Origin: a virus
DNA length: 64,000 nt
Strand: one strand, 5' to 3'
Virus record (IMG/VR): IMGVR_UViG_3300047564_001181
Location: 31,187-95,186 of that record
In this document: one piece after another, positions 10,963 to 49,747 of the stretch
Position numbering within the stretch: the stretch's first letter is position 1
Layout: each line of letters opens with the position of its first letter
Notes under the pieces: model-generated
Told to the model about the DNA's origin: nothing
What the model saw: only the letters and a program-made list of their open reading frames with translations
The model's database searches: none
Position numbers and translations under genes: made by a program

Positions 10963-10964
10963 GC

Positions 10965-11035
10965 TGGAATGATAGGATTCGAACCTATAGCCCGCCGATT
11001 AACAGTCGGCTGCTCTGCCATTGAGCTACACTCCA
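10965..11035 (-). tRNA. tRNA-Asn (GUU)
   Basis: A 71-nt cloverleaf. The acceptor TGGAGTG pairs with CATTCC A (one G-U), the D arm is GCTC/GAGC, the anticodon stem is GCCGA/TCGGC with loop CTGTTAA (anticodon GTT), and the T loop is TTCGAAT. No CCA is encoded. It reads AAC/AAU codons. Confidence 0.95.
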
Positions 11036-11045
11036 AAAGTGGATA

Positions 11046-11223
11046 GGTGGATTGCTTTTTACCACCACGGATAAGCCAGCAATACATCTAAGTACCGCTT
11101 TCATCCGACCAGACCTTTGTTCCGCTAAGAACAGAGACGCTAATCTCAGACCTGTGCTTTACTCTCCCCTTGCTGGCAAAGAGATTCGTTCAGCCATATC
11201 CCAAATTCTTCGTCAAGAATTTG
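11046..11223 (-). ncRNA. candidate structured RNA B between tRNA-Thr and tRNA-Asn
   Basis: This 192-bp spacer has no gene but many helices on the minus strand. These are a perfect 9-bp hairpin with loop GACG (11223-11202), an 8-bp outer helix GCCAGCAA/TTGCTGGC (11177-11170 with 11082-11075), and two hairpins inside it with the same hexaloop TTAGCG (GAGA..TCTC and TGTTC..GAACA). A GGTGG..CCACC hairpin lies at 11066-11046. The identical twin loops suggest a protein- or RNA-binding site. It matches no RNA family I can recall. It may simply be tRNA spacer, but the density of pairing argues against that. Confidence 0.5.
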
Positions 11224-11227
11224 TTTG

Positions 11228-11299
11228 AGCCTTCTATCCGATTTGAACGGATGACCCTCGCATTACAAGTGCGATGCTCTACCACTGAGCTAAGAAGGC
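11228..11299 (-). tRNA. tRNA-Thr (UGU)
   Basis: A 72-nt cloverleaf with a fully paired 7-bp acceptor (GCCTTCT/AGAAGGC). The D arm is GCTC/GAGC, the anticodon stem TCGCA/TGCGA with loop CTTGTAA (anticodon TGT), and the T arm ATCCG/CGGAT with loop TTCAAAT. No CCA is encoded. It is the first gene behind the promoter at 11315-11343. Confidence 0.95.
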
Positions 11300-11314
11300 G
11301 AACTCCATAAAGCA

Positions 11315-11343
11315 AATATACCCTATGGAGAACGATTTGTCAA
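11315..11343 (-). promoter_or_regulatory. promoter for the tRNA-Thr to thioredoxin segment
   Basis: TTGACA (11338-11343) and TATATT (11315-11320) on the minus strand are 17 bp apart. The expected start falls about 8 bases before the tRNA-Thr 5' end. It lies directly after the endolysin stop, so the RNA genes and thioredoxin can be made independently of the lysis gene. Confidence 0.8.
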
Positions 11344-11346
11344 GAG

Positions 11347-12141
11347 TTACTTGACTTTATTTGCAAGTTTTTTAAACTCTGCGAATGTCTTTGGACCAAC
11401 TACAGCATCAGCAGTTCCAAACTTTGGATTTGCTTTTTGCCAAGCAACTACTGCTTTTCTAGTTACAGGACCATACTGACCATCTACTGCTTTACCAGTA
11501 AATCCAAGAGCCTTCTGAATAACCTTAATGTATTCTCCAACCTCGCCTGGCTGAATTGGGTCATTTGGATATGCTGCTGGGTCATGTGGCTTTTCAGCCT
11601 TTGGCTTAATTGCCTTTACTGGACCTGGGAACTTAGGACGACCAAAGCCAACAATGCTGACCTGAACGCCCTTCTTGTTCTTTTTGTATCCACGAATCTT
11701 CTTTAGAACCATACCACCATTTCTTTGGTCTCCAGTAACACCAGCAGTGTTACCTTCAACAGTAGTTACGGTTCCATCGCCATTGTCTTTAATAACAATA
11801 CCGACATGAGAAATCCTCTCAACGCCATCTCCAGGAAAATTGAAATAAGCGACATCTCCTGGTTGTGGCTTTGCATCATCTGCATCAGACCATGCTTTTG
11901 CCTTTTCAAATGCTGCTGCACCGTTAGGAGTATAGATTGTTGCTTTATCTCCAGGAAGTTTAAATCCTGCCTGATTTGCACACCAAATTACGAATGAACC
12001 ACACCATGCAACAAAGTTAGCACCAGTGAATGCACCGTATTTAGTTTGATTATCTTTTGGACCTTCAACAACGCCGACTTCTTTGAGAGCAACCTCAACA
12101 AATTTTTCGGCAGTGCCAAGTTCCGCTGGTTTCTTAGCCAT
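11347..12141 (-). CDS. endolysin: CHAP amidase/peptidase with peptidoglycan-binding domain
   Basis: A 264-residue lysin. The CHAP domain spans about 10-165, with the catalytic cysteine in AWCGSF (C47) and the histidine in ISHVGI (H112). A Pro/Lys linker leads to a PG_binding_1-type domain at about 195-260 (GEYIKVIQKALG, VDGQYGPVTRKAVVAWQ). It cleaves peptidoglycan cross-links at the end of infection. The start is set at 12141 because the longer frame runs into tRNA-Glu. No signal peptide is seen, so a holin is expected, yet none is recognisable nearby. Confidence 0.93.
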   Translation of the reverse strand: MAKKPAELGTAEKFVEVALKEVGVVEGPKDNQTKYGAFTGANFVAWCGSFVIWCANQAGFKLPGDKATIYTPNGAAAFEKAKAWSDADDAKPQPGDVAYFNFPGDGVERISHVGIVIKDNGDGTVTTVEGNTAGVTGDQRNGGMVLKKIRGYKKNKKGVQVSIVGFGRPKFPGPVKAIKPKAEKPHDPAAYPNDPIQPGEVGEYIKVIQKALGFTGKAVDGQYGPVTRKAVVAWQKANPKFGTADAVVGPKTFAEFKKLANKVK

Positions 12142-12169
12142 ATATTTTTTACCTCTTCTAATTAGATTT

Positions 12170-12184
12170 GATAGCTTGGCTATC
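12170..12184 (-). other. short hairpin between tRNA-Glu and endolysin
   Basis: GATAGC and GCTATC form a perfect 6-bp stem with a 3-base loop, starting 3 bases after the 3' end of tRNA-Glu. No T-run follows, so it is more likely a tRNA 3' trailer or processing hairpin than a terminator. Confidence 0.5.
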
Positions 12185-12186
12185 AG

Positions 12187-12259
12187 CACCCTATACGAGA
12201 TTCGAACTCGTGGTCTCTTCCGTGAGAGGGAAGCGTCCTTACCGCTAGACCAATAGGGC
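12187..12259 (-). tRNA. tRNA-Glu (CUC)
   Basis: A 73-nt cloverleaf. The acceptor GCCCTAT pairs with ATAGGGT and is followed by discriminator G. The anticodon stem is CTTCC/GGAAG with loop CTCTCAC (anticodon CTC), and the T arm is ACGAG/CTCGT with loop TTCGAAT. No CCA is encoded. It reads GAG. Confidence 0.95.
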
Positions 12260-12283
12260 TTGGATATAGATTATATCATTTAG

Positions 12284-12541
12284 TGGAGCATATGGGAATT
12301 GAACCCATGTCCAAATAGTTTCTGTCTAAACGGAATTACAGCAATTTGTTTTTATTACGGTTTGTTTTTTCTTTTTGTTTTGCAACTTTCTGTTCCCAAG
12401 GAGTTGCCCCTCGGCACTGCTATGCAGCTAGTGCGAGAGCGTTTTGTGTTACGCCGTTTATTATTTTGTGTCGTTTTAGAAGTCTACACAACTTCTGCTG
12501 CCGTGTTAGATTTCGGCTATCTGTCGAAACCTGTATGCCCC
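12284..12541 (-). ncRNA. ssrA: transfer-messenger RNA (tmRNA), compact one-piece form
   Basis: Both ends of the tRNA-like domain are clear. The 5' end is GGGGCATACAGGTTTCGACA and the 3' end has the T arm ATGGG/CCCAT with loop TTCAATT, then ATGCTCC A. The 7-bp acceptor pairs fully (one G-U). A pseudoknot near the 5' end pairs GCCG/CGGC and AGAT/ATCT. A second pseudoknot after the tag pairs CCGAGG/CCTTGG and GCAACT/AGTTGC. The tag frame (12455-12420) reads GVTQNALALAA then TAG, preceded by AATAATAAAC, like the segment before the E. coli resume codon. At 258 nt it is shorter than usual (about 350). It should rescue stalled ribosomes and tag proteins for proteolysis. Confidence 0.93.
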
Positions 12542-12542
12542 G

Positions 12543-12614
12543 CACCCCTGGCAGGATTCGAACCTGCGACCAATAGCTTAGAAGGCTACTGCTCTTCCAC
12601 TGAGCTACAGAGGT
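12543..12614 (-). tRNA. tRNA-Arg (UCU)
   Basis: A 72-nt cloverleaf. The acceptor ACCTCTG pairs with CAGGGGT (one U-G), followed by discriminator G. The anticodon stem is GTAGC/GCTAT with loop CTTCTAA (anticodon TCT), and the T arm is GCAGG/CCTGC with loop TTCGAAT. It reads AGA, a codon common in the genes of this window. Its 3' end is one base from the tmRNA 5' end, so one RNase P cut probably frees both. Confidence 0.95.
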
Positions 12615-41580: not shown

Positions 41581-44500
41581 TTAACTCCTAAACCTATTTT
41601 CCATAGAGCGTTGTACTCTTCTAAATTCTTTAACAACAAGATTTGCTGCTTGTTGTGGGTCATTGGAAGTAACAGAGATATTAACAGGCATATTAAGATT
41701 GTTGTTCTTAACCTTTGTTGTAGAAGTCATTACAGATGTTACTCTAGCACTATTTGACTCAGGCATGCTGTATTCTGGAACCTTTCCGCCCATTTGCATA
41801 CCAATTCTTCCGCCAACCATTCCTCCCATATTATACCCTACTCTTCCTCCAGAGTTCATTGCCTGAAGTGTTGAAAGGTTTGCAGCGGTTGCTTTTTTAT
41901 TTACAACAAACTCTCCTGGGGTAAGCATGGCTGGAACAGTATCTGTATTTCCAACCCCTGGAACAATTGAGCCTTTATTAAATCTCATCACCATTCCACC
42001 TTTATTGAGGAACTGCATAGAGCTTAAGGGAATTCCATTCCAACTATCTCCAGTAATTCCACTTGCAACCATCTTGCCATTGCTATTGTAAATACTATAA
42101 GTAGATGAGGTTGGATTAAACTGTTTCTTAAACTTAGAAGTTTGTTGACCTGTAACCTGACCATTTTGTGCTTGATACTGCTTAACGCTTCCAATGCCAC
42201 TTACTGTAATAGTGGTTGTACCAAATCCTGGAGGAAGTATACCTTGAGCATTTGAGCCAGCACCAGAGGTTGCTGTAAATCCACCAATAACAGCAGCGTA
42301 TAGTTTTTGAGCTGCAGCTTGGTCTAGTCCGTATGCGTCAGCAAGTGCTGTTGCTGCATTTTTAATTGCTGTGTCAAACCCTTCTACCAGTCCTTTTGAT
42401 GAAGCATTAACAGACTCTTTAACCTTTGGAGGTACAATTTCTGCAACCTCAATTGCTGCGTCTTCAAGTTTTTGAAGGTCGGTAGCAGTTACTTCTCCAA
42501 CCTCCATATCAATGATTTCTTGAGATTTATCAATTAGACCCTGTAGCCCACGCAAAGACTTATTACGACCAATATTAATCTTTTCAATCTTTTTATCAAT
42601 GTTGTCCATCTGTGCGTCAGCGGCTTCACCTGCGGCATTTGCAGCTTTTTGATTTGCCTTAAGTTGAGCATCAATGCCCTTGATTGCGTTATCTCTAGTA
42701 TCTTCAATTTGGTTAATAGCTTCTTCTCTACCAAACTGTTGAGCATCTGAAGCTTGTTGAATTTGAGATTGAACAAATCCAAAAAGGTCTCCCTTAGCAA
42801 GAGATGAAAGTCCGTCTATAGATGTTTGTCTTTGGTTGTTATAAAATTCTTCTGCCTTGTATTCTTTTTCAAGAAGTTTAATGTACTCGTCTGTATTGTC
42901 ATTAATAAGGTCTGCTCTATCTTGAAGAGCCTCAGCTTCTGCATCCAGTTGTTTCATTCTGGATTCGTGTGCATCTGCTAAAGCACCCTTTTCTTTTTCA
43001 AGAGCAGCAATTCTTCCATTTGCAATGTCATTTACTTTTTCCATTGCATCTTCTTGTGTCTTAATATAATCTCTTAATTGATTATCTAAGTCAATTTTTG
43101 CCTGACGAGATGCCTCATTAAAGTTAACTTTTGCTTCAAGCTCAATAGGTGGTAGATTTAAATCTTTAGGGTCGATTCCAGCTGCGAGTGCTCTCATAAA
43201 TAGTTGAGCAGATTCTCTACCAGATTCTGTTGCTAGGTTTAGATTTGCAAATGCATCGGCAGCAGCTGACTCTGGACCATATCCCATATTTCCAAGAGAT
43301 TGCTCAATGCCCATTCTAAGTGATTGTGGGTCAAGATTCTGACTATTAATTAGTTGTGCTGTTTGAACTCCAAACTCAATTGGATTATCAGCAGATTGTC
43401 TTAGTAAGTTTTCGTATGCACCAACGAAGGCAGTTGCTTTCTCTTCAGCAGTTCCAAGATTTTTAATTGTTGCCTGAACAGATGTAACAAGAACTCCCAT
43501 AGCATCTTCTGCGTTTTTAATTCCTTTTAATGTAGTATTCCATGCTGAGTTAAATGCTTCAGTTGCCATAGATTGTCTAGCAATTTCTGCAGTAATTTCT
43601 TTTGCTTGTGTTGTATCAAAACCTTGTGTTAGGAGCGATGTGTATACTTCAGTTAAAGTATTTGCCTTTTCCTGTTCAGTTCCCAGACCCTTAATTCTTT
43701 CAATTGCATCACCATAATCTTGTGTAACTGCAGCGGCATAATCTTTTTCAATCTGACCACGACCAACAATTGCAGCAGCCATACCCATAGAACGAGTTTG
43801 CTTTTCATTTTCTTTAAGGGCAGCACCTGTCTTTTTAAGTTCGATGTTGTATACCTTAGCCATTTCAGTGGCTTCTCCGTACACATCTCTAATCTGATTT
43901 ACCCACTGCTCAACCTTCATGTCACGGATAAAGTTTCCAATTTCATAGATAGTTGCTAGTGTTCCTACAACTGGAATTGCTTTAAGACCAACTCTTGCAA
44001 TTCCCTTTAAGATTCCTCCACCAAGCATTTTTTGTGCGAGTGCTCCACCAGCTCCACCGCCACCCTTTAGCATAGCTTGTTTTTGCATTTGTCTTTGTAT
44101 TGCATCCTGACCCATGCCTTTTGCCATCATTGCTTTTTGAGCTTTTTGAGCTGCAGAAATACCTCTTCCAGCTTTCAAACCGCCCATTAAGTTTAGACCA
44201 CCAGCACCAACACCTTGCTTAAGCCCAACTAAATTTAATCCCAACATTAATGCTGACATTGGGTCTAGACCAGTTGTCATTATGCCTTCAATAATTGATG
44301 GTAATGTAGCTGCTGATATAGCTCCAAAACCAATCATCATGGCTTTACTTCCAGTAAGTCCTGCAAAAAGTTTTGCTAATCCTCCAACTGCAAATTTTCC
44401 ATATCCCTGTGTATTTCCCATTCCACCATTAATTTGTGCAAGTAGTCCAAGATTATTCTTTGTAGCATCTTTATTGATAACAAATTCGCCTGGTTCTAGT

Positions 44501-47500
44501 AAGGCTGGAACCTTGTCTCCACCTCCAAATCCAGGAAGTTTTCCGCCATTAGCATATTTAAGAACTGGTCCACCCATATTAAATTTTTGTGCTCCAATAA
44601 GTTCACCCTCAAGTACGCTAAATCCATTAGGGTCTGTAGACTTTCCAGTCACTCTAATTCTTGAGTTTGTCAGCAAGTGCTCTGCTTCTGACATTACACC
44701 CATGCCTTCAATAAATCTCTTATCTCCAGCAATATCTGTGAGAGGCAAGGTCATTGTTCCTCTAGGAGTTTTAATGCTAATAATTAAAGGTTCTCTATTT
44801 TGAAGGAATCTAGATTTTGCTCTTTCCGCTTGATTTCTTTCAATACTATAATCCATAGAGCCTCTAGCATTTCTAATTTTTCTATCAAATTCGTCTAGGG
44901 CTTCCTTACGCTTTTTAACTTCATATGGGAATGGTTCTAATTGTTTGCCAAATAAAGTTCCTTCTTGAGATGGGAATAGTGCATCTTCTAGTTCTTGTCT
45001 TTGTCTCTGTAAGTCTGCTAATTGTCTTCTTGAACTTAGATACTGTCTAGCATGGAAAACCCGATTGCTTCGCATAATTAATTGCTCTTCGGCTGGTGTT
45101 GTTGCAACCCTAGTTCCCCAGTTTGCCGCACCGACATCTCCCATACCAAGTTCTTCCATTAAACCTTTTTGTCCGTATGTATATCGTCTTTCAGCACCTA
45201 TTCTATGCATGCTAGCAAAAGTTGTTGCTGTACCCTGACTTGCAGAGAAAGAAGATGTGCCAGGAACTTCAAAAATATCTCCAGGCTTTAATGCCTGTAA
45301 TTCTGCGGAGTCAATCGATGTTCCTCTAAATAGCTGGGTGTCGTGCATAGTCCCTGTTTGTTTCTTTCTAAGAGCATCTATATAGAGTTCTATATCACTT
45401 TTTGGAACTGTCTGTGTAGATAACTTGCCAATAGGGACTGAATCTGCATCTAACTTAATTTTCTTCATCCAGTCATTAATATTAAATCCTTTTTGCAAAA
45501 GTTCTGTTGCTTCTGGAAGGGCTTTTTGTTCTGACCTAGAAAGAATTTGCATAAGCCCACCAACTAAACCGCCGTTTTTCATTCCAGGAATTTTAGCTCT
45601 AATAATTGACCTTATTATTGGCAAAACTTTTTCGCTAAGTGAGAATAAATATTGTTTTTGACTACCTCTAGCAGCTGCATATTCTGCCCTAACAACTGTA
45701 TCTACACCCTTTTGAAGCGTACTTTGACCTACATATCTAATTTCATCTAATTGACCTAAGTCTCTAAGACCAACCCTACCTAAATTTCTCTTTCTTTCTT
45801 CAGTAAGCCAATCATCATATGATAGATTTGGATTTCTTCCCTGTGCCGCTGCAAACTTAGCTTGTCTTTCTTGTAATTTTTGAACTGCTACCGATGAACC
45901 ATATTTTTGTCTTAATTCATTTTCGCTATAAAATATATCTTCCAGTGCCTGAAGACCTTTGCCGTATATAAGTTTTCTTCCAGTTAGAGGCTCAACAATT
46001 TTAGCAATTAATGACTTTTGTTTTTGACCTAGTGGTCCTCTTTCAAGGACGCTGCCTATCTGAGTTGCACCTTTTCTAATATCTTCTGCCGCAGCTGAAA
46101 TTTCAGCCTGGTGTGCAGCACTAATTAGCTGACCATTTAAAAGGCTTTTAGGGTTGGTTCCGCTAACTCTTCCATCAATAATATCTTTTGTTTGTTCAAA
46201 AGTTACTAATGCTCCAGATAGTTGCCCAATATTTTTTCTATTATTTGTTAATGCGTTTAATAAATTATCATCTGTTCTAGAAAGCAAACTTTCAGAGATG
46301 TCTTGAAAAAGGGATTGTAGTTCTTTATTTACAACCAATGGTCTGGTGTCACGAATAATTCGTCTTATTGAATTTGCATCATATGATTTCCCTGTACTCC
46401 TATTTAATTCATCTGCAATAGTTCTAAATGTATCGTCTGATGATGCACCTAAGCTTTCAACTAGCTGATTTAGTCCACCACCTTCAGCAGATGTGATTAA
46501 TGCGTAGTCATTTAAGAAAGCCATTCCTGGAAGGTGTGCATCGGCTGTAAATCCTGAAGCTGTAAGTTGCCTTTGATATCCAGCCTGTGTTGGAGTTGGT
46601 GATGATGGAAGCTGTGCTGAAAAATCTAAAGCATTTTTACCAGCCATAAAGTGTGCTCTGTGAACACCAACTCCATGTCTTACTTCACCATCTGATAATC
46701 CTAATTTGTATCTATCACTTACTGATTGTGTTTTTGCACTATCTGGATAAACATGGCTAAGGGCTGTAATTTCATCTTGATTAAGAAGACCTCTTCTTGA
46801 TAAATCTGCAAATACCTGTTCATATGATTTTGGAGCAGAGCTAACTTTTGCCTTTAGACCTTTCTTTGCGTATTCTTCTTGGAACACTCTTCTTTCTTCT
46901 TCGGTTCCAGTTAATCTTTCTGTTAAGCCATTTGAATATTGACCATATGTTCCATCATTAATAGAGCGAAGAATTGGAGCAAATCTTCTAGATGATTCTT
47001 TATTAATAACAAACTCTCCCTTTTCAAGAAGGGCTGGAACCTTGTCTCCTCCACCATAACCATTAATTTTTCCTCCAGTATCTACTCCGTTTTCGGCATA
47101 GATTACTCCGCCGTCTTTTCTTCTAATAGGTCTTGGACCTCTAGAAGAAGGCATAACTGCTCCTGGTGGAGCAACTGTAGCGGCATTTCTTAAGTTTGCA
47201 ATATAGGTTGAAAGTGATTTATTTAGAAGGTCAACAGATGTCTTTTGTCTATTGTACGCACCTGTTAATTGGTCTGCAGCTATTTTTGCTGCTAATTCTT
47301 CGTCAGTAAGAATTTGTAATTGTTGTACTGGACTTCCAGTAATTCTCTTAAAGAGATTGATAATACTCATGCCGAACTTCATTGCGTTACCAATCAAGTT
47401 ACCAAAAATACCAGCAAGCATAAGAATTGGACCAGATACTGCTGCTACTCCAGCTAGAATCTTAGCAAAGTTTTTAATTGGTGTAGGTAAGTTATTAAAT

Positions 47501-49086
47501 CCATCTACAACCTTTTGTAGAATGTCAAGAGCCTTCTGCATAATTGGTAGCAATGTTTCAGCTAGGTCAGCACCGACACGAATTAATTGTTCTTGTAATT
47601 GTTGTTGTGCTGCTGCAAGTCTTGTTGATGGTGCTCGCTCTTGAGCTTTTAATTCCGAATAAGCTTTCTTTGCAAGTTCATCTGCAGATGCATTCATAAG
47701 TTTTACCATGCCAATTGTCTGAGAGCCTTGCTGATTTAAGTTATCGAATAATGCAGAAATACGAGCAAACTGATACTTACCAAAGATTTGTTCAATAATT
47801 TTTGCTTTACCAAAATCATCTAGTCCTCGTAACTGGTCTTGGAAATCTAGAAGCATAGGCATAAGCTGACCTCTGTTTCGGTCAACTACTCCCTGTAGGT
47901 CAATGCCGAACTGTCTTGCCACCTCAATTGCTTGTTTTGTTGGAGATATAAGAGATGCCATACCAGACTTGATTGCGTTAGCACCTTCACCTGCTGCAAT
48001 ACCACCCTCACGCATTGCCGTCATAAGAATTGAAAGGTCTTTAATGTCACCACCTAGTGCCTGAATAACAGGACCAGTTTTAGGAATTGCTTCTACTAAA
48101 TCTTGTAGCGATGCAGATGTTTGGTTTTCAACTGCGTTTAAAAAGTCGATTGACTGAGCAAGTTCTCTTGAGCTTTGATTGAATGCTGTCTGAATAGATA
48201 GAGTTGCTTTCATAGCCTCTTGTCTATCAACTTCACCGAGAACCATCATACGAGTTGTTTGTGTGACGGCTGATGCAAGTTTTTGACCTTCTAGACCAGT
48301 TGCTGCTAAGTCTGCAGCAAGTGCCATAGTTTCTGAAGATGCAATACCATATTGCTTTGCAAACTCTGAGCCAAGAGTTCTAATTTGACCAATCATTTCA
48401 TCTGTGGCATTACCAACAGTTCCAGTTAGGTCAGAGCCGTATACTTTACGGAATCTTGTAATCTGTCTATCTACTTCAGAGAATGCTTTTAATGCCTGTG
48501 TAGAGAAAATAGCCATTGGAACGGTAAGACCAACAGTTAGCTGACGACCAGCCCATTGAGTATTTTTACCCCAGTTTACAAGTTCTGTTGCTCCACGATT
48601 TACAAGGTGGTTAAAAACCTCATATTGTTTATTTAATACTGCAATATTATTTGCAGCATTTCTCATATCTAATGCGTCTGGAGTAAGAAGAATACCTTTT
48701 CTTCTTCCTCCAACATCACCCATGCCAACTACGGCAGACTGTGCTCTTCTAACTTCTCTTTCAGCCAAGATTCTAGCTTTTGAATCTTTTCTATATGCTA
48801 CTGCTGCTTCTCTAAAGTACTCACGCATTGTGAGTTTGTTTTTCATTAACTGCTGACCGAAGCCTTCGGTTGCACCCGTTAGGTCAACAATTTGTGCTTT
48901 AAAACCAGCAAAGCCAGCTTGGGACGCAAATGTTGAGGCTGCGTCCATCTTAATGCTGGCTGCTGTTTTATTTAATTGTGCAAATGCTGAGTTTGCAGCA
49001 GTTGCTTCACGAACAAGGTTTTTAATGTCCTTTGTTACTTTGCTAAAATCACTGTCGTACCTAAATGTGGACCTGATATCAGCCAT
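41581..49086 (-). CDS. tape measure protein with embedded ADP-ribosyltransferase-like domain
   Basis: A 2501-residue protein. The N-terminal 600 residues are TP901-type tape measure (helical, hydrophobic patch near 540-580). The motif GGGDKVPALL..GEFVINK occurs near 677 and 1520, and a variant (TDTVPAMLTPGEFVVNK) near 2375. Between the first two copies lies an unusual 840-residue region ending in an ART-like fold: LFRGTS (R about 1251), TSSFSAS (about 1278-1284), A..FA, and SEAEHLL with E-x-E near 1465-1467. A long coiled coil lies near 1985-2180. It sets tail length and enters the cell with the DNA, so the inserted domain could act in the host. Confidence 0.95.
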   Translation of the reverse strand: MADIRSTFRYDSDFSKVTKDIKNLVREATAANSAFAQLNKTAASIKMDAASTFASQAGFAGFKAQIVDLTGATEGFGQQLMKNKLTMREYFREAAVAYRKDSKARILAEREVRRAQSAVVGMGDVGGRRKGILLTPDALDMRNAANNIAVLNKQYEVFNHLVNRGATELVNWGKNTQWAGRQLTVGLTVPMAIFSTQALKAFSEVDRQITRFRKVYGSDLTGTVGNATDEMIGQIRTLGSEFAKQYGIASSETMALAADLAATGLEGQKLASAVTQTTRMMVLGEVDRQEAMKATLSIQTAFNQSSRELAQSIDFLNAVENQTSASLQDLVEAIPKTGPVIQALGGDIKDLSILMTAMREGGIAAGEGANAIKSGMASLISPTKQAIEVARQFGIDLQGVVDRNRGQLMPMLLDFQDQLRGLDDFGKAKIIEQIFGKYQFARISALFDNLNQQGSQTIGMVKLMNASADELAKKAYSELKAQERAPSTRLAAAQQQLQEQLIRVGADLAETLLPIMQKALDILQKVVDGFNNLPTPIKNFAKILAGVAAVSGPILMLAGIFGNLIGNAMKFGMSIINLFKRITGSPVQQLQILTDEELAAKIAADQLTGAYNRQKTSVDLLNKSLSTYIANLRNAATVAPPGAVMPSSRGPRPIRRKDGGVIYAENGVDTGGKINGYGGGDKVPALLEKGEFVINKESSRRFAPILRSINDGTYGQYSNGLTERLTGTEEERRVFQEEYAKKGLKAKVSSAPKSYEQVFADLSRRGLLNQDEITALSHVYPDSAKTQSVSDRYKLGLSDGEVRHGVGVHRAHFMAGKNALDFSAQLPSSPTPTQAGYQRQLTASGFTADAHLPGMAFLNDYALITSAEGGGLNQLVESLGASSDDTFRTIADELNRSTGKSYDANSIRRIIRDTRPLVVNKELQSLFQDISESLLSRTDDNLLNALTNNRKNIGQLSGALVTFEQTKDIIDGRVSGTNPKSLLNGQLISAAHQAEISAAAEDIRKGATQIGSVLERGPLGQKQKSLIAKIVEPLTGRKLIYGKGLQALEDIFYSENELRQKYGSSVAVQKLQERQAKFAAAQGRNPNLSYDDWLTEERKRNLGRVGLRDLGQLDEIRYVGQSTLQKGVDTVVRAEYAAARGSQKQYLFSLSEKVLPIIRSIIRAKIPGMKNGGLVGGLMQILSRSEQKALPEATELLQKGFNINDWMKKIKLDADSVPIGKLSTQTVPKSDIELYIDALRKKQTGTMHDTQLFRGTSIDSAELQALKPGDIFEVPGTSSFSASQGTATTFASMHRIGAERRYTYGQKGLMEELGMGDVGAANWGTRVATTPAEEQLIMRSNRVFHARQYLSSRRQLADLQRQRQELEDALFPSQEGTLFGKQLEPFPYEVKKRKEALDEFDRKIRNARGSMDYSIERNQAERAKSRFLQNREPLIISIKTPRGTMTLPLTDIAGDKRFIEGMGVMSEAEHLLTNSRIRVTGKSTDPNGFSVLEGELIGAQKFNMGGPVLKYANGGKLPGFGGGDKVPALLEPGEFVINKDATKNNLGLLAQINGGMGNTQGYGKFAVGGLAKLFAGLTGSKAMMIGFGAISAATLPSIIEGIMTTGLDPMSALMLGLNLVGLKQGVGAGGLNLMGGLKAGRGISAAQKAQKAMMAKGMGQDAIQRQMQKQAMLKGGGGAGGALAQKMLGGGILKGIARVGLKAIPVVGTLATIYEIGNFIRDMKVEQWVNQIRDVYGEATEMAKVYNIELKKTGAALKENEKQTRSMGMAAAIVGRGQIEKDYAAAVTQDYGDAIERIKGLGTEQEKANTLTEVYTSLLTQGFDTTQAKEITAEIARQSMATEAFNSAWNTTLKGIKNAEDAMGVLVTSVQATIKNLGTAEEKATAFVGAYENLLRQSADNPIEFGVQTAQLINSQNLDPQSLRMGIEQSLGNMGYGPESAAADAFANLNLATESGRESAQLFMRALAAGIDPKDLNLPPIELEAKVNFNEASRQAKIDLDNQLRDYIKTQEDAMEKVNDIANGRIAALEKEKGALADAHESRMKQLDAEAEALQDRADLINDNTDEYIKLLEKEYKAEEFYNNQRQTSIDGLSSLAKGDLFGFVQSQIQQASDAQQFGREEAINQIEDTRDNAIKGIDAQLKANQKAANAAGEAADAQMDNIDKKIEKINIGRNKSLRGLQGLIDKSQEIIDMEVGEVTATDLQKLEDAAIEVAEIVPPKVKESVNASSKGLVEGFDTAIKNAATALADAYGLDQAAAQKLYAAVIGGFTATSGAGSNAQGILPPGFGTTTITVSGIGSVKQYQAQNGQVTGQQTSKFKKQFNPTSSTYSIYNSNGKMVASGITGDSWNGIPLSSMQFLNKGGMVMRFNKGSIVPGVGNTDTVPAMLTPGEFVVNKKATAANLSTLQAMNSGGRVGYNMGGMVGGRIGMQMGGKVPEYSMPESNSARVTSVMTSTTKVKNNNLNMPVNISVTSNDPQQAANLVVKEFRRVQRSMENRFRS

Positions 49087-49747
49087 TATGCACCAATAAG
49101 ACTATAGCCAGTTCCATCTATTTTGTCAAATCCAAACAGTGCAGCATTAGCAGCCTCCTGGTTTCCAGTGGCTTTTGCAATCGCTCTTGATTTAACTTCT
49201 TCAAATGTCACGGCTTTGTCTTGTTCTCCTTTATCATCTTTGTCGATGTCTACCCCTTGTAGAGCAGCCATAAACTTTTGTTGCCTATGCTCTTTCTTAT
49301 GAATAGCACTTAGCGTTGCCATAAGTTCTTGCATTGACAAACTTTCTTCCAGTTGTTCGTAGTCCTTCCAGTGTCCTAAAAGGAATACTTCGGATTCGTA
49401 GGTGGCTAGGTCTAGCTCAGACCAGCTTGTTCCAGAGCCACCTGAAGTTGGTTTGGGTCATTCAGCTTAATATCCGCCCCCACCTCCAGAATCTTGTACA
49501 TGGTCTGAAGGTCTACAGAGTCTTCAAGAGTCTCTCTATCTTCAGAAAGTTTCGGTGCATACTGCTTCATAGCAATCTGCGTACATTCGACAAGAATCTC
49601 AAGGAATTCATCCTCATTAGAGATATCTTGAGTTTTTGACCAAGCTTTCATAACTTCTCTTAAGTTTTTAATGCTTAGTGGTTTTACTTCAATTGATGTG
49701 CCATCGAGCAGTTCTAGCTCAACGGACTCGTAGATTTTTGTTGCCAA
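49086..49747 (-). CDS. tail assembly chaperone, frameshifted long form (gpGT-like)
   Basis: A join of two frames: the short chaperone frame from 49747 to the slippery site (49451-49457), then the -1 frame to 49086. After the slip the product continues ...PTSGGSGTSWSELDLATYES, VFLLGHWKDYEQLEESLS, and on to MQELMATLSAIHKK. A separate start at 49340 exists in this frame but leaves the 49341-49450 coding segment unexplained. This G/GT arrangement before a tape measure gene is the known lambda and siphovirus pattern. Confidence 0.85.
49412..49747 (-). CDS. tail assembly chaperone, short form (gpG-like)
   Basis: A 111-residue acidic helical protein starting with TTG behind AGGAGGAATT. It reads VELELLDGTSIEVKPLSIKN early and NDPNQLQVALEQAGLS at the end, a usual form of the first chaperone. 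It is made when ribosomes do not slip at CCCAAAC. It coats the tape measure protein during tail assembly. It follows the major tail protein and its terminator. Confidence 0.9.
   Translation of the reverse strand: MATKIYESVELELLDGTSIEVKPLSIKNLREVMKAWSKTQDISNEDEFLEILVECTQIAMKQYAPKLSEDRETLEDSVDLQTMYKILEVGADIKLNDPNQLQVALEQAGLS
49451..49457 (-). promoter_or_regulatory. -1 ribosomal frameshift site CCCAAAC
   Basis: On the minus strand the heptamer C-CCA-AAC lies in the zero frame of the short chaperone (codons GAC CCA AAC), the X-XXY-YYZ form needed for tandem -1 slippage. In the -1 frame a TGA lies just upstream of it and no stop follows before 49086, so slippage must occur in this small window. 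Confidence 0.88.

What the first reader, a model, noticed from the sequence alone, without database searches (positions are those of the whole stretch)
44640..45345. ADP-ribosyltransferase-like domain inside the tape measure protein
Residues about 1245-1480 of the 2501-residue tape measure protein show the R-S-E layout of the ART fold: LFRGTS, then TSSFSAS with A..FA, then LIISIKTPRG and SEAEHLL (E-x-E) followed by a strand. T4 Alt and ModA show that phages use ARTs on host RNA polymerase and other targets, but those are not tape measure proteins. Tape measures are ejected into the host with the DNA, so this domain could be delivered at the first moment of infection. A helical insert of about 150 residues separates the S and E blocks.
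Basis: partly seen in the sequence, partly recalled or inferred. Interest (0 to 1): 0.88.

Follow-up and report, generated by a model that had tools for sequence, protein, structure and literature searches.

The report
ADP-ribosyltransferase module inside phage tape-measure protein
The protein that sets the tail length of this uncultured phage carries a built-in domain that looks like an ADP-ribosyltransferase, an enzyme that tags other molecules with a piece of NAD; related phages carry clearer versions in the same protein, which suggests that some phages fire such enzymes into bacteria as part of the tail itself.

Summary
The 2501-residue tape measure protein (TMP; 41581-49086, minus strand) has R1254-G, S1279-F-S1281 and E1467-A-E1469 in R-S-E order, with a helical hairpin of about 135 residues between S and E. 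All these residues are invariant in two other TMPs that carry the module (70% and 40% identity). The window's own model is poor (pLDDT 57, three sequences), so the fold is not shown directly. The support is indirect but strong. The R-S half matches (hhalign P = 4.6e-7) a second TMP-embedded family found in 29 contigs. That family has every catalytic residue conserved, a good AlphaFold model (pLDDT 80), and only ADP-ribosyltransferases (ARTs) among its 38 significant Foldseek PDB hits. A third, weaker family sits in 12 more TMPs. Across a TMP tree the modules come and go (at least 6 changes). Six TMPs of cultured relatives lack them. Surveys of phage ARTs describe head-linked carriers (MuF, portal) and never mention tape measures. 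Best reading: a cargo enzyme carried in the tail, delivered with the TMP at infection, that mono-ADP-ribosylates a host target. Activity, target and delivery are inferred, not shown. New variant of a known kind.

The parts
41581..49086 (-). Tape measure protein, 2501 aa
   Evidence: PhageMin_Tail 1.6e-24; PHROG 10030 1.5e-102; synteny with Stanwilliamsviridae tail modules
44581..45543 (-). ART-like module, residues 1182-1502
   Evidence: Discrete block shared with L002 (70% id) and L003 (40% id); residues 713-1165 have no counterpart in L003
45325..45327 (-). R1254, first catalytic-motif residue (LF-R-G)
   Evidence: Invariant in family A and aligned family B
45244..45252 (-). S1279-F-S1281, S-x-S motif
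   Evidence: Invariant in family A and aligned family B
44797..45201 (-). Helical insert, residues 1296-1430, predicted coiled-coil hairpin between the S and E blocks
   Evidence: AF2 helices at model 150-187 and 206-248; absent from families B and C
44680..44688 (-). E1467-A-E1469, E-x-E motif
   Evidence: Both Glu invariant in W, L002, L003; collinear with family B E-x-E, though this half alone is not significant (P 0.16)
47005..47055 (-). Linker 1, GGGDKVPALLEKGEFVI, residues 678-694
   Evidence: part of an 84-nt repeat, 79% identical to linker 2
44476..44526 (-). Linker 2, GGGDKVPALLEPGEFVI, residues 1521-1537; closes the variable cassette
41905..41955 (-). Linker 3, VGNTDTVPAMLTPGEFV, residues 2378-2394
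45592..47004 (-). Residues 695-1165, variable region of unknown function before the ART-like module
   Evidence: No Pfam match and only a sub-threshold PHROG match (0.53) for residues 695-1150; 25% id to L002, no counterpart in L003

Best explanation
Residues ~1182-1502 of the TMP form an R-S-E-class mono-ADP-ribosyltransferase carrying a coiled-coil insertion. It is an exchangeable cargo cassette between repeated linkers of the TMP. The enzyme is built into the tail, leaves with the TMP during genome injection, and in the new host uses NAD to mono-ADP-ribosylate a host macromolecule (the E-x-E form suggests an arginine), favouring the phage at the first moment of infection. Shown here: the motifs, their conservation, the place inside the TMP ORF, homology of the R-S half to an unambiguous TMP-borne ART family, and patchy gain and loss. 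Inferred: fold of the window's copy, catalytic activity, delivery into the cytoplasm, and target.
For: Motif order and positions. Invariant R, S-x-S, E-x-E in three TMPs down to 40% identity. Profile match of residues 1225-1310 to family B: hhalign P 4.6e-7, prob 92.6; in a scan of the whole window TMP with 86-residue windows the best is residues 1205-1290 (score 30.1, against 16.8 for the best non-overlapping window). With the window-family profile, the best hits outside the family among 110 TMPs are family B ART segments (best E 0.0019). Family B: 29 TMP contigs, all with a homologous TMP N-terminus, R, S-x-S, E-x-E invariant, model pLDDT 79.9, all 38 significant PDB fold hits are ARTs, viral fold hits include ModA, VIP2 and capsid/portal-protein ARTs. 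Weak match of the window module to PHROG 832 RNA polymerase ADP-ribosylase at the R-S part (E 0.08). Purifying selection, dN/dS 0.21. Patchy distribution on the TMP tree. TMPs are thought to leave the tail and form the DNA channel (PMC11445458; PMC8718954).
Against: The window's own model is poor and its fold match not significant. No Pfam ART hit. The E-x-E half alone does not reach significance against family B. Only three members of this exact family are known. Nothing shows that the ART part reaches the cytoplasm rather than lining a membrane channel, or that a folded domain fits in the tail lumen. Six cultured relatives lack the module, so it is dispensable for the TMP role.
Confidence: 0.66

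Rival explanations
1. The domain is ART-derived and delivered, but acts as an NADase or otherwise on NAD-dependent defence, not as a modifier of a host protein or nucleic acid.
For: ART-fold enzymes can hydrolyse NAD; phage and host NAD systems are a known battleground (PMC9503650). L003 has a cytidylyltransferase-like module (E 6.7e-4, just under cutoff) right behind its ART, which could relate to NAD metabolism.
Against: E-x-E is typical of transferases that modify arginine (general knowledge); a few copies per tail would make a weak bulk NADase.
Confidence: 0.14
2. An ART-derived but catalytically idle domain reused as structural filler that sets tail length or coats the channel.
For: It sits in a protein whose length is structural; the coiled-coil insert looks structural.
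Against: R, S-x-S and E-x-E are kept while the surrounding region diverges (family A; family B; family C); presence is patchy and exchangeable.
Confidence: 0.12
3. Chance likeness: an unrelated TMP segment with R, S and E motifs in order.
For: Poor AF2 model and no significant single-sequence match.
Against: Profile match to family B P 4.6e-7, reciprocal best placement among TMPs, invariant motifs at 40% identity, only 3 of 2200 shuffled TMPs match the strict pattern.
Confidence: 0.06
4. The ORF is a chimaera of assembly or a gene fusion artefact.
For: Metagenomic contig.
Against: Same architecture in L002 and L003 from separate contigs, and ART modules in 41 further TMP contigs.
Confidence: 0.01

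Closest known systems
MuF-ART (VIP2-type) fusions and MuF polymorphic toxins of phages
   Same: R-S-E ART fused to a virion structural protein, presumed to be injected with the DNA; described in Microbacterium phages (PMC7302621), Stenotrophomonas phage AXL1 (PMC9206674) and PMC9503650; family B folds match such proteins
   Different: Carrier is the tail tape measure, not the head protein MuF; the module is internal rather than C-terminal; no immunity gene was looked for
T4 Alt / ModA / ModB
   Same: Phage R-S-E ARTs acting on host RNA polymerase and other proteins; weak PHROG 832 match; ModA among family B viral fold hits
   Different: Alt is a free head-packaged protein and ModA/B are made after infection; none is part of a tail protein
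Polyvalent proteins (Iyer et al. 2017, PMC5512222)
   Same: Large virion proteins with exchangeable effector domains, ARTs frequent
   Different: Described carriers are head or portal proteins and conjugative elements; the word tape does not occur in the text
TMPs with peptidoglycan hydrolase domains (M23, SLT, NlpC/P60, CHAP)
   Same: Enzymatic domains embedded in TMPs; common in this same TMP group and in cultured relatives
   Different: Those act on the cell wall during entry; an ART needs cytoplasmic NAD

Membership tests
R-S-E clade of ADP-ribosyltransferases | Catalytic Arg on the first strand (R) | tested here: met
   R1254 invariant in family A and aligned with invariant R of family B
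R-S-E clade of ADP-ribosyltransferases | S-T/x-S motif on strand 2 | tested here: met
   S1279-F-S1281 invariant, aligned with S-W-S of family B
R-S-E clade of ADP-ribosyltransferases | E/Q-x-E motif followed by a strand | tested here: met
   E1467-A-E1469 invariant, strand predicted after it; this half alone is not significant against family B
R-S-E clade of ADP-ribosyltransferases | ART fold | tested here: inconclusive
   Window model pLDDT 57; best fold hits are Vis ART, E 0.076. TMP family B: met
R-S-E clade of ADP-ribosyltransferases | R, S, E converge in one NAD cleft | not testable with these tools
R-S-E clade of ADP-ribosyltransferases | NAD-dependent transferase activity | not testable with these tools
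   Needs biochemistry
Pfam ADPrib_exo_Tox (PF03496) | Score above the curated cut-off | tested here: not met
   No hit for the window module; family B 13.7 bits against a 23.4 cut-off
MuF-ART fusion / MuF polymorphic toxin | ART attached to a MuF head protein | tested here: not met
   The carrier is a TMP
Siphovirus tape measure proteins | TMP homology, and position after major tail protein and tail chaperones | tested here: met
Virion-delivered effector | Present in virions and delivered into the host cytoplasm | not testable with these tools
   Inferred from the general TMP mechanism

The most novel reading that the evidence does not exclude
In this group of long-tailed phages, the tape measure protein is a general, modular effector-delivery vehicle. 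Cassettes between repeated linkers are swapped among phages and include several ART families, tandem ART-like copies, a nucleotidyltransferase-like module and other enzymes, making the tail a counterpart of head-packaged polyvalent or MuF effectors.
Probability: 0.45. Interest if true: 0.86.

Novelty: new variant of a known kind. Interest (0 to 1): 0.74.

Why it matters
Phage ARTs presumed to be delivered are known from heads (T4 Alt, MuF and portal fusions). Finding them inside tape measures of 44 contigs, in at least two and probably three families, points to a second delivery route: the tail. It makes an open question testable, namely which part of a siphovirus tape measure enters the cytoplasm, because an ADP-ribosylated host molecule before phage gene expression would be a direct reporter of TMP entry. 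It also suggests that the highly variable middle parts of TMPs are worth mining for host-takeover and anti-defence enzymes.

Tried and rejected
phmmer and profile searches of PDB sequences gave nothing useful (coiled-coil matches to occludin are spurious). tblastn of the module in 50,697 phage records: none; of family B: none. Bacterial and archaeal genomes: none. The weak Pfam PARP_reg and DUF2458 matches (E 0.02-0.6) lie outside the catalytic pattern or in the coiled coil and were dismissed. A coarse pattern in two cultured TMPs (L127 266-478, L131 897-1086) has no profile support and was dismissed. Searches failed through a wrong frame; one search was a report with a format error. Literature searches for tape measure with ART, toxin domain, polyvalent or NADase found no prior report; subscription papers and preprints are not held.

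Full report
WHAT WAS CHECKED. The window lies in a 95,186-base virus record. The TMP is a single ORF, 41581-49086 on the minus strand, 2501 aa. Its N-terminal part is a standard tape measure (PhageMin_Tail at 241-436; PHROG 10030). Gene order around it (portal, protease, major capsid protein, major tail protein, two small chaperone-type genes, TMP, minor tail proteins) is that of Streptomyces phages of the Stanwilliamsviridae and Rhodococcus phage Trina, with about 30% TMP identity to the Streptomyces phages. The host is therefore probably an actinobacterium (inference).

THE MODULE. By relatives, the unit spans residues 1182-1502. Two other IMG/VR contigs, L002 and L003, carry it at 70% and 40% identity. 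R1254-G, S1279-x-S1281, the A and TF after the S motif, and E1467-x-E1469-HLL are invariant in the three. In L003 the flanking residues 713-1165 of the window have no counterpart, so the ART-like block is a separate module. It is under purifying selection (dN/dS 0.21 against L002, 0.25 against L003 with near-saturated synonymous sites). Further searches of viral contigs, GTDB genomes and cultured phages found no other member.

FOLD OF THE WINDOW'S COPY. With three sequences AlphaFold2 gives pLDDT 57 and pTM 0.37. The order of elements (strand with R; strand and helix around S; two long helices at residues 1331-1368 and 1387-1429; strand; E-x-E; strands) is that expected of an ART with a coiled-coil hairpin inserted, but the model is too weak to count as evidence alone. 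Foldseek ranks three structures of the Vis ART first (E 0.076-0.12), with HopU1, CDTa, Certhrax and ExoT lower, none significant.

RELATIVES THAT SETTLE THE GENERAL POINT. Looking through the 80 TMPs found with the window's N-terminal part, I saw other R-S-E-like segments. Family B (LHRGV ... RRSSWSTN.DTAEGFG ... VNESEVYMGGKFRV) was found in 29 contigs. Every one is a TMP whose N-terminus is homologous to the window's (about 45-51% identity; L093 over part of it). R, S-x-S and E-x-E are invariant in 17 representatives. The AlphaFold2 model is good (pLDDT 79.9, pTM 0.71). All 38 PDB hits at E <= 0.001 are ARTs: iota toxin Ia, C3 exoenzymes, HopU1, Certhrax, Plx2a, XopAI, BECa. Viral fold hits include ModA, VIP2-like ARTs and proteins named minor capsid or portal protein. 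So ART domains inside TMPs are well supported, whatever one thinks of the window's copy.

LINK BETWEEN THE TWO FAMILIES. Whole-profile comparison gives E 3.9e-5. The piece 1225-1310 alone gives P 4.6e-7, probability 92.6, aligned over the Y..LRxKxTG..RG..SS(F/W)S..TA..F pattern; the insert gives nothing (P 0.3), and the C-terminal piece aligns collinearly with E-x-E in register but only at P 0.16. In a scan of the window TMP in 86-residue windows, the ART region is the clear best match to family B. Profile A searched against 110 TMPs picks family B ART segments as its best outside hits, and profile B has L002 and the window at the right place among its best outside hits, with weak E-values (0.19 and 1.4). 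A joint alignment has R-G, S-x-S, A and F invariant.

A THIRD, WEAKER FAMILY. L013 and relatives (12 contigs, all TMPs) have L(Y/F)RGT ... QSFS(S/T) ... V(N/D)EKEW, all conserved. These TMPs contain further copies of the same module (for example L117 834-1009 against L123 1567-1751, E 6e-9), each with an RG motif by eye.

DISTRIBUTION. On a tree of 120 TMP N-terminal regions the ART states need at least 6 changes; A and C are single clades, B is patchy within its clade (truncated TMPs without an ART were not counted, long branches flagged). The six cultured TMPs examined have no ART by profile, and of three scanned with Pfam two have an M23 peptidase and one nothing enzymatic. In the window the ART sits in a variable stretch between linkers GGGDKVPALLE(K/P)GEFVI; the two linkers are 79% identical over 84 nt, a possible site for cassette exchange (inference).

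MECHANISM. Proposed for siphophages in general: the TMP fills the tail lumen and is expelled to form the DNA channel (PMC11445458; PMC8718954). Inferred: the ART part is carried along, refolds in or at the cytoplasm and modifies a host molecule. E-x-E rather than Q-x-E suggests arginine modification (general knowledge). Steps shown: gene, motif, conservation, homology, distribution. Steps not shown: virion presence, entry, activity, target.

NOVELTY. Two large surveys of phage effectors and ARTs (PMC5512222; PMC9503650, covering 21,191 viral proteomes) describe head, MuF and portal carriers and free genes; the word tape does not occur in either. Other searches found no TMP-ART report. The enzyme class and the idea of a virion-carried ART are known; the carrier is new as far as I can see. 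Hence new variant of a known kind.

Noticed in passing
window 49451-49457: Slippery heptamer CCCAAAC on the minus strand within ORF 49412-49747, with the other frame open into ORF 49086-49340: a typical tail-assembly-chaperone frameshift. Ordinary.
   Followed up: partly
window 10963-12614: Phage-borne tmRNA (tag GVTQNALALAA) with tRNA-Asn, -Thr, -Glu and -Arg around it.
   Followed up: no
L003 TMP, about residues 1471-1593: Cytidylyltransferase-like module (FGRMNPPTSGH, PF01467 E 6.7e-4, just under cutoff) directly after the ART module inside the TMP.
   Followed up: partly
L117 TMP, after the family C module: Segment GNADTHSGNFGISGGKIMMLDNT resembles, by eye only, the catalytic and metal motifs of PI3/4-kinase-like or HipA-like kinases; no Pfam hit.
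   Followed up: partly
L013, L117, L123 TMPs: Two to three tandem ART-like copies per TMP, separated by short GGR(V/I)QSHA-type linkers.
   Followed up: partly
L045 TMP, residue 2572 onward: Another ART-like pattern (LYRGL ... GYSTTDPNVAKSFS) near the C-terminal part of a TMP.
   Followed up: no
alignments A5 and A6 (34 TMPs): TMPs of this group carry many cell-wall enzymes (M23, CHAP, NlpC/P60, SLT, tail lysozyme), LysM, OmpA, and weak ABC1-kinase and GNAT hits.
   Followed up: no
window 45592-47004: Residues 695-1165 of the TMP, a variable region with no family match, may be another cargo module.
   Followed up: no
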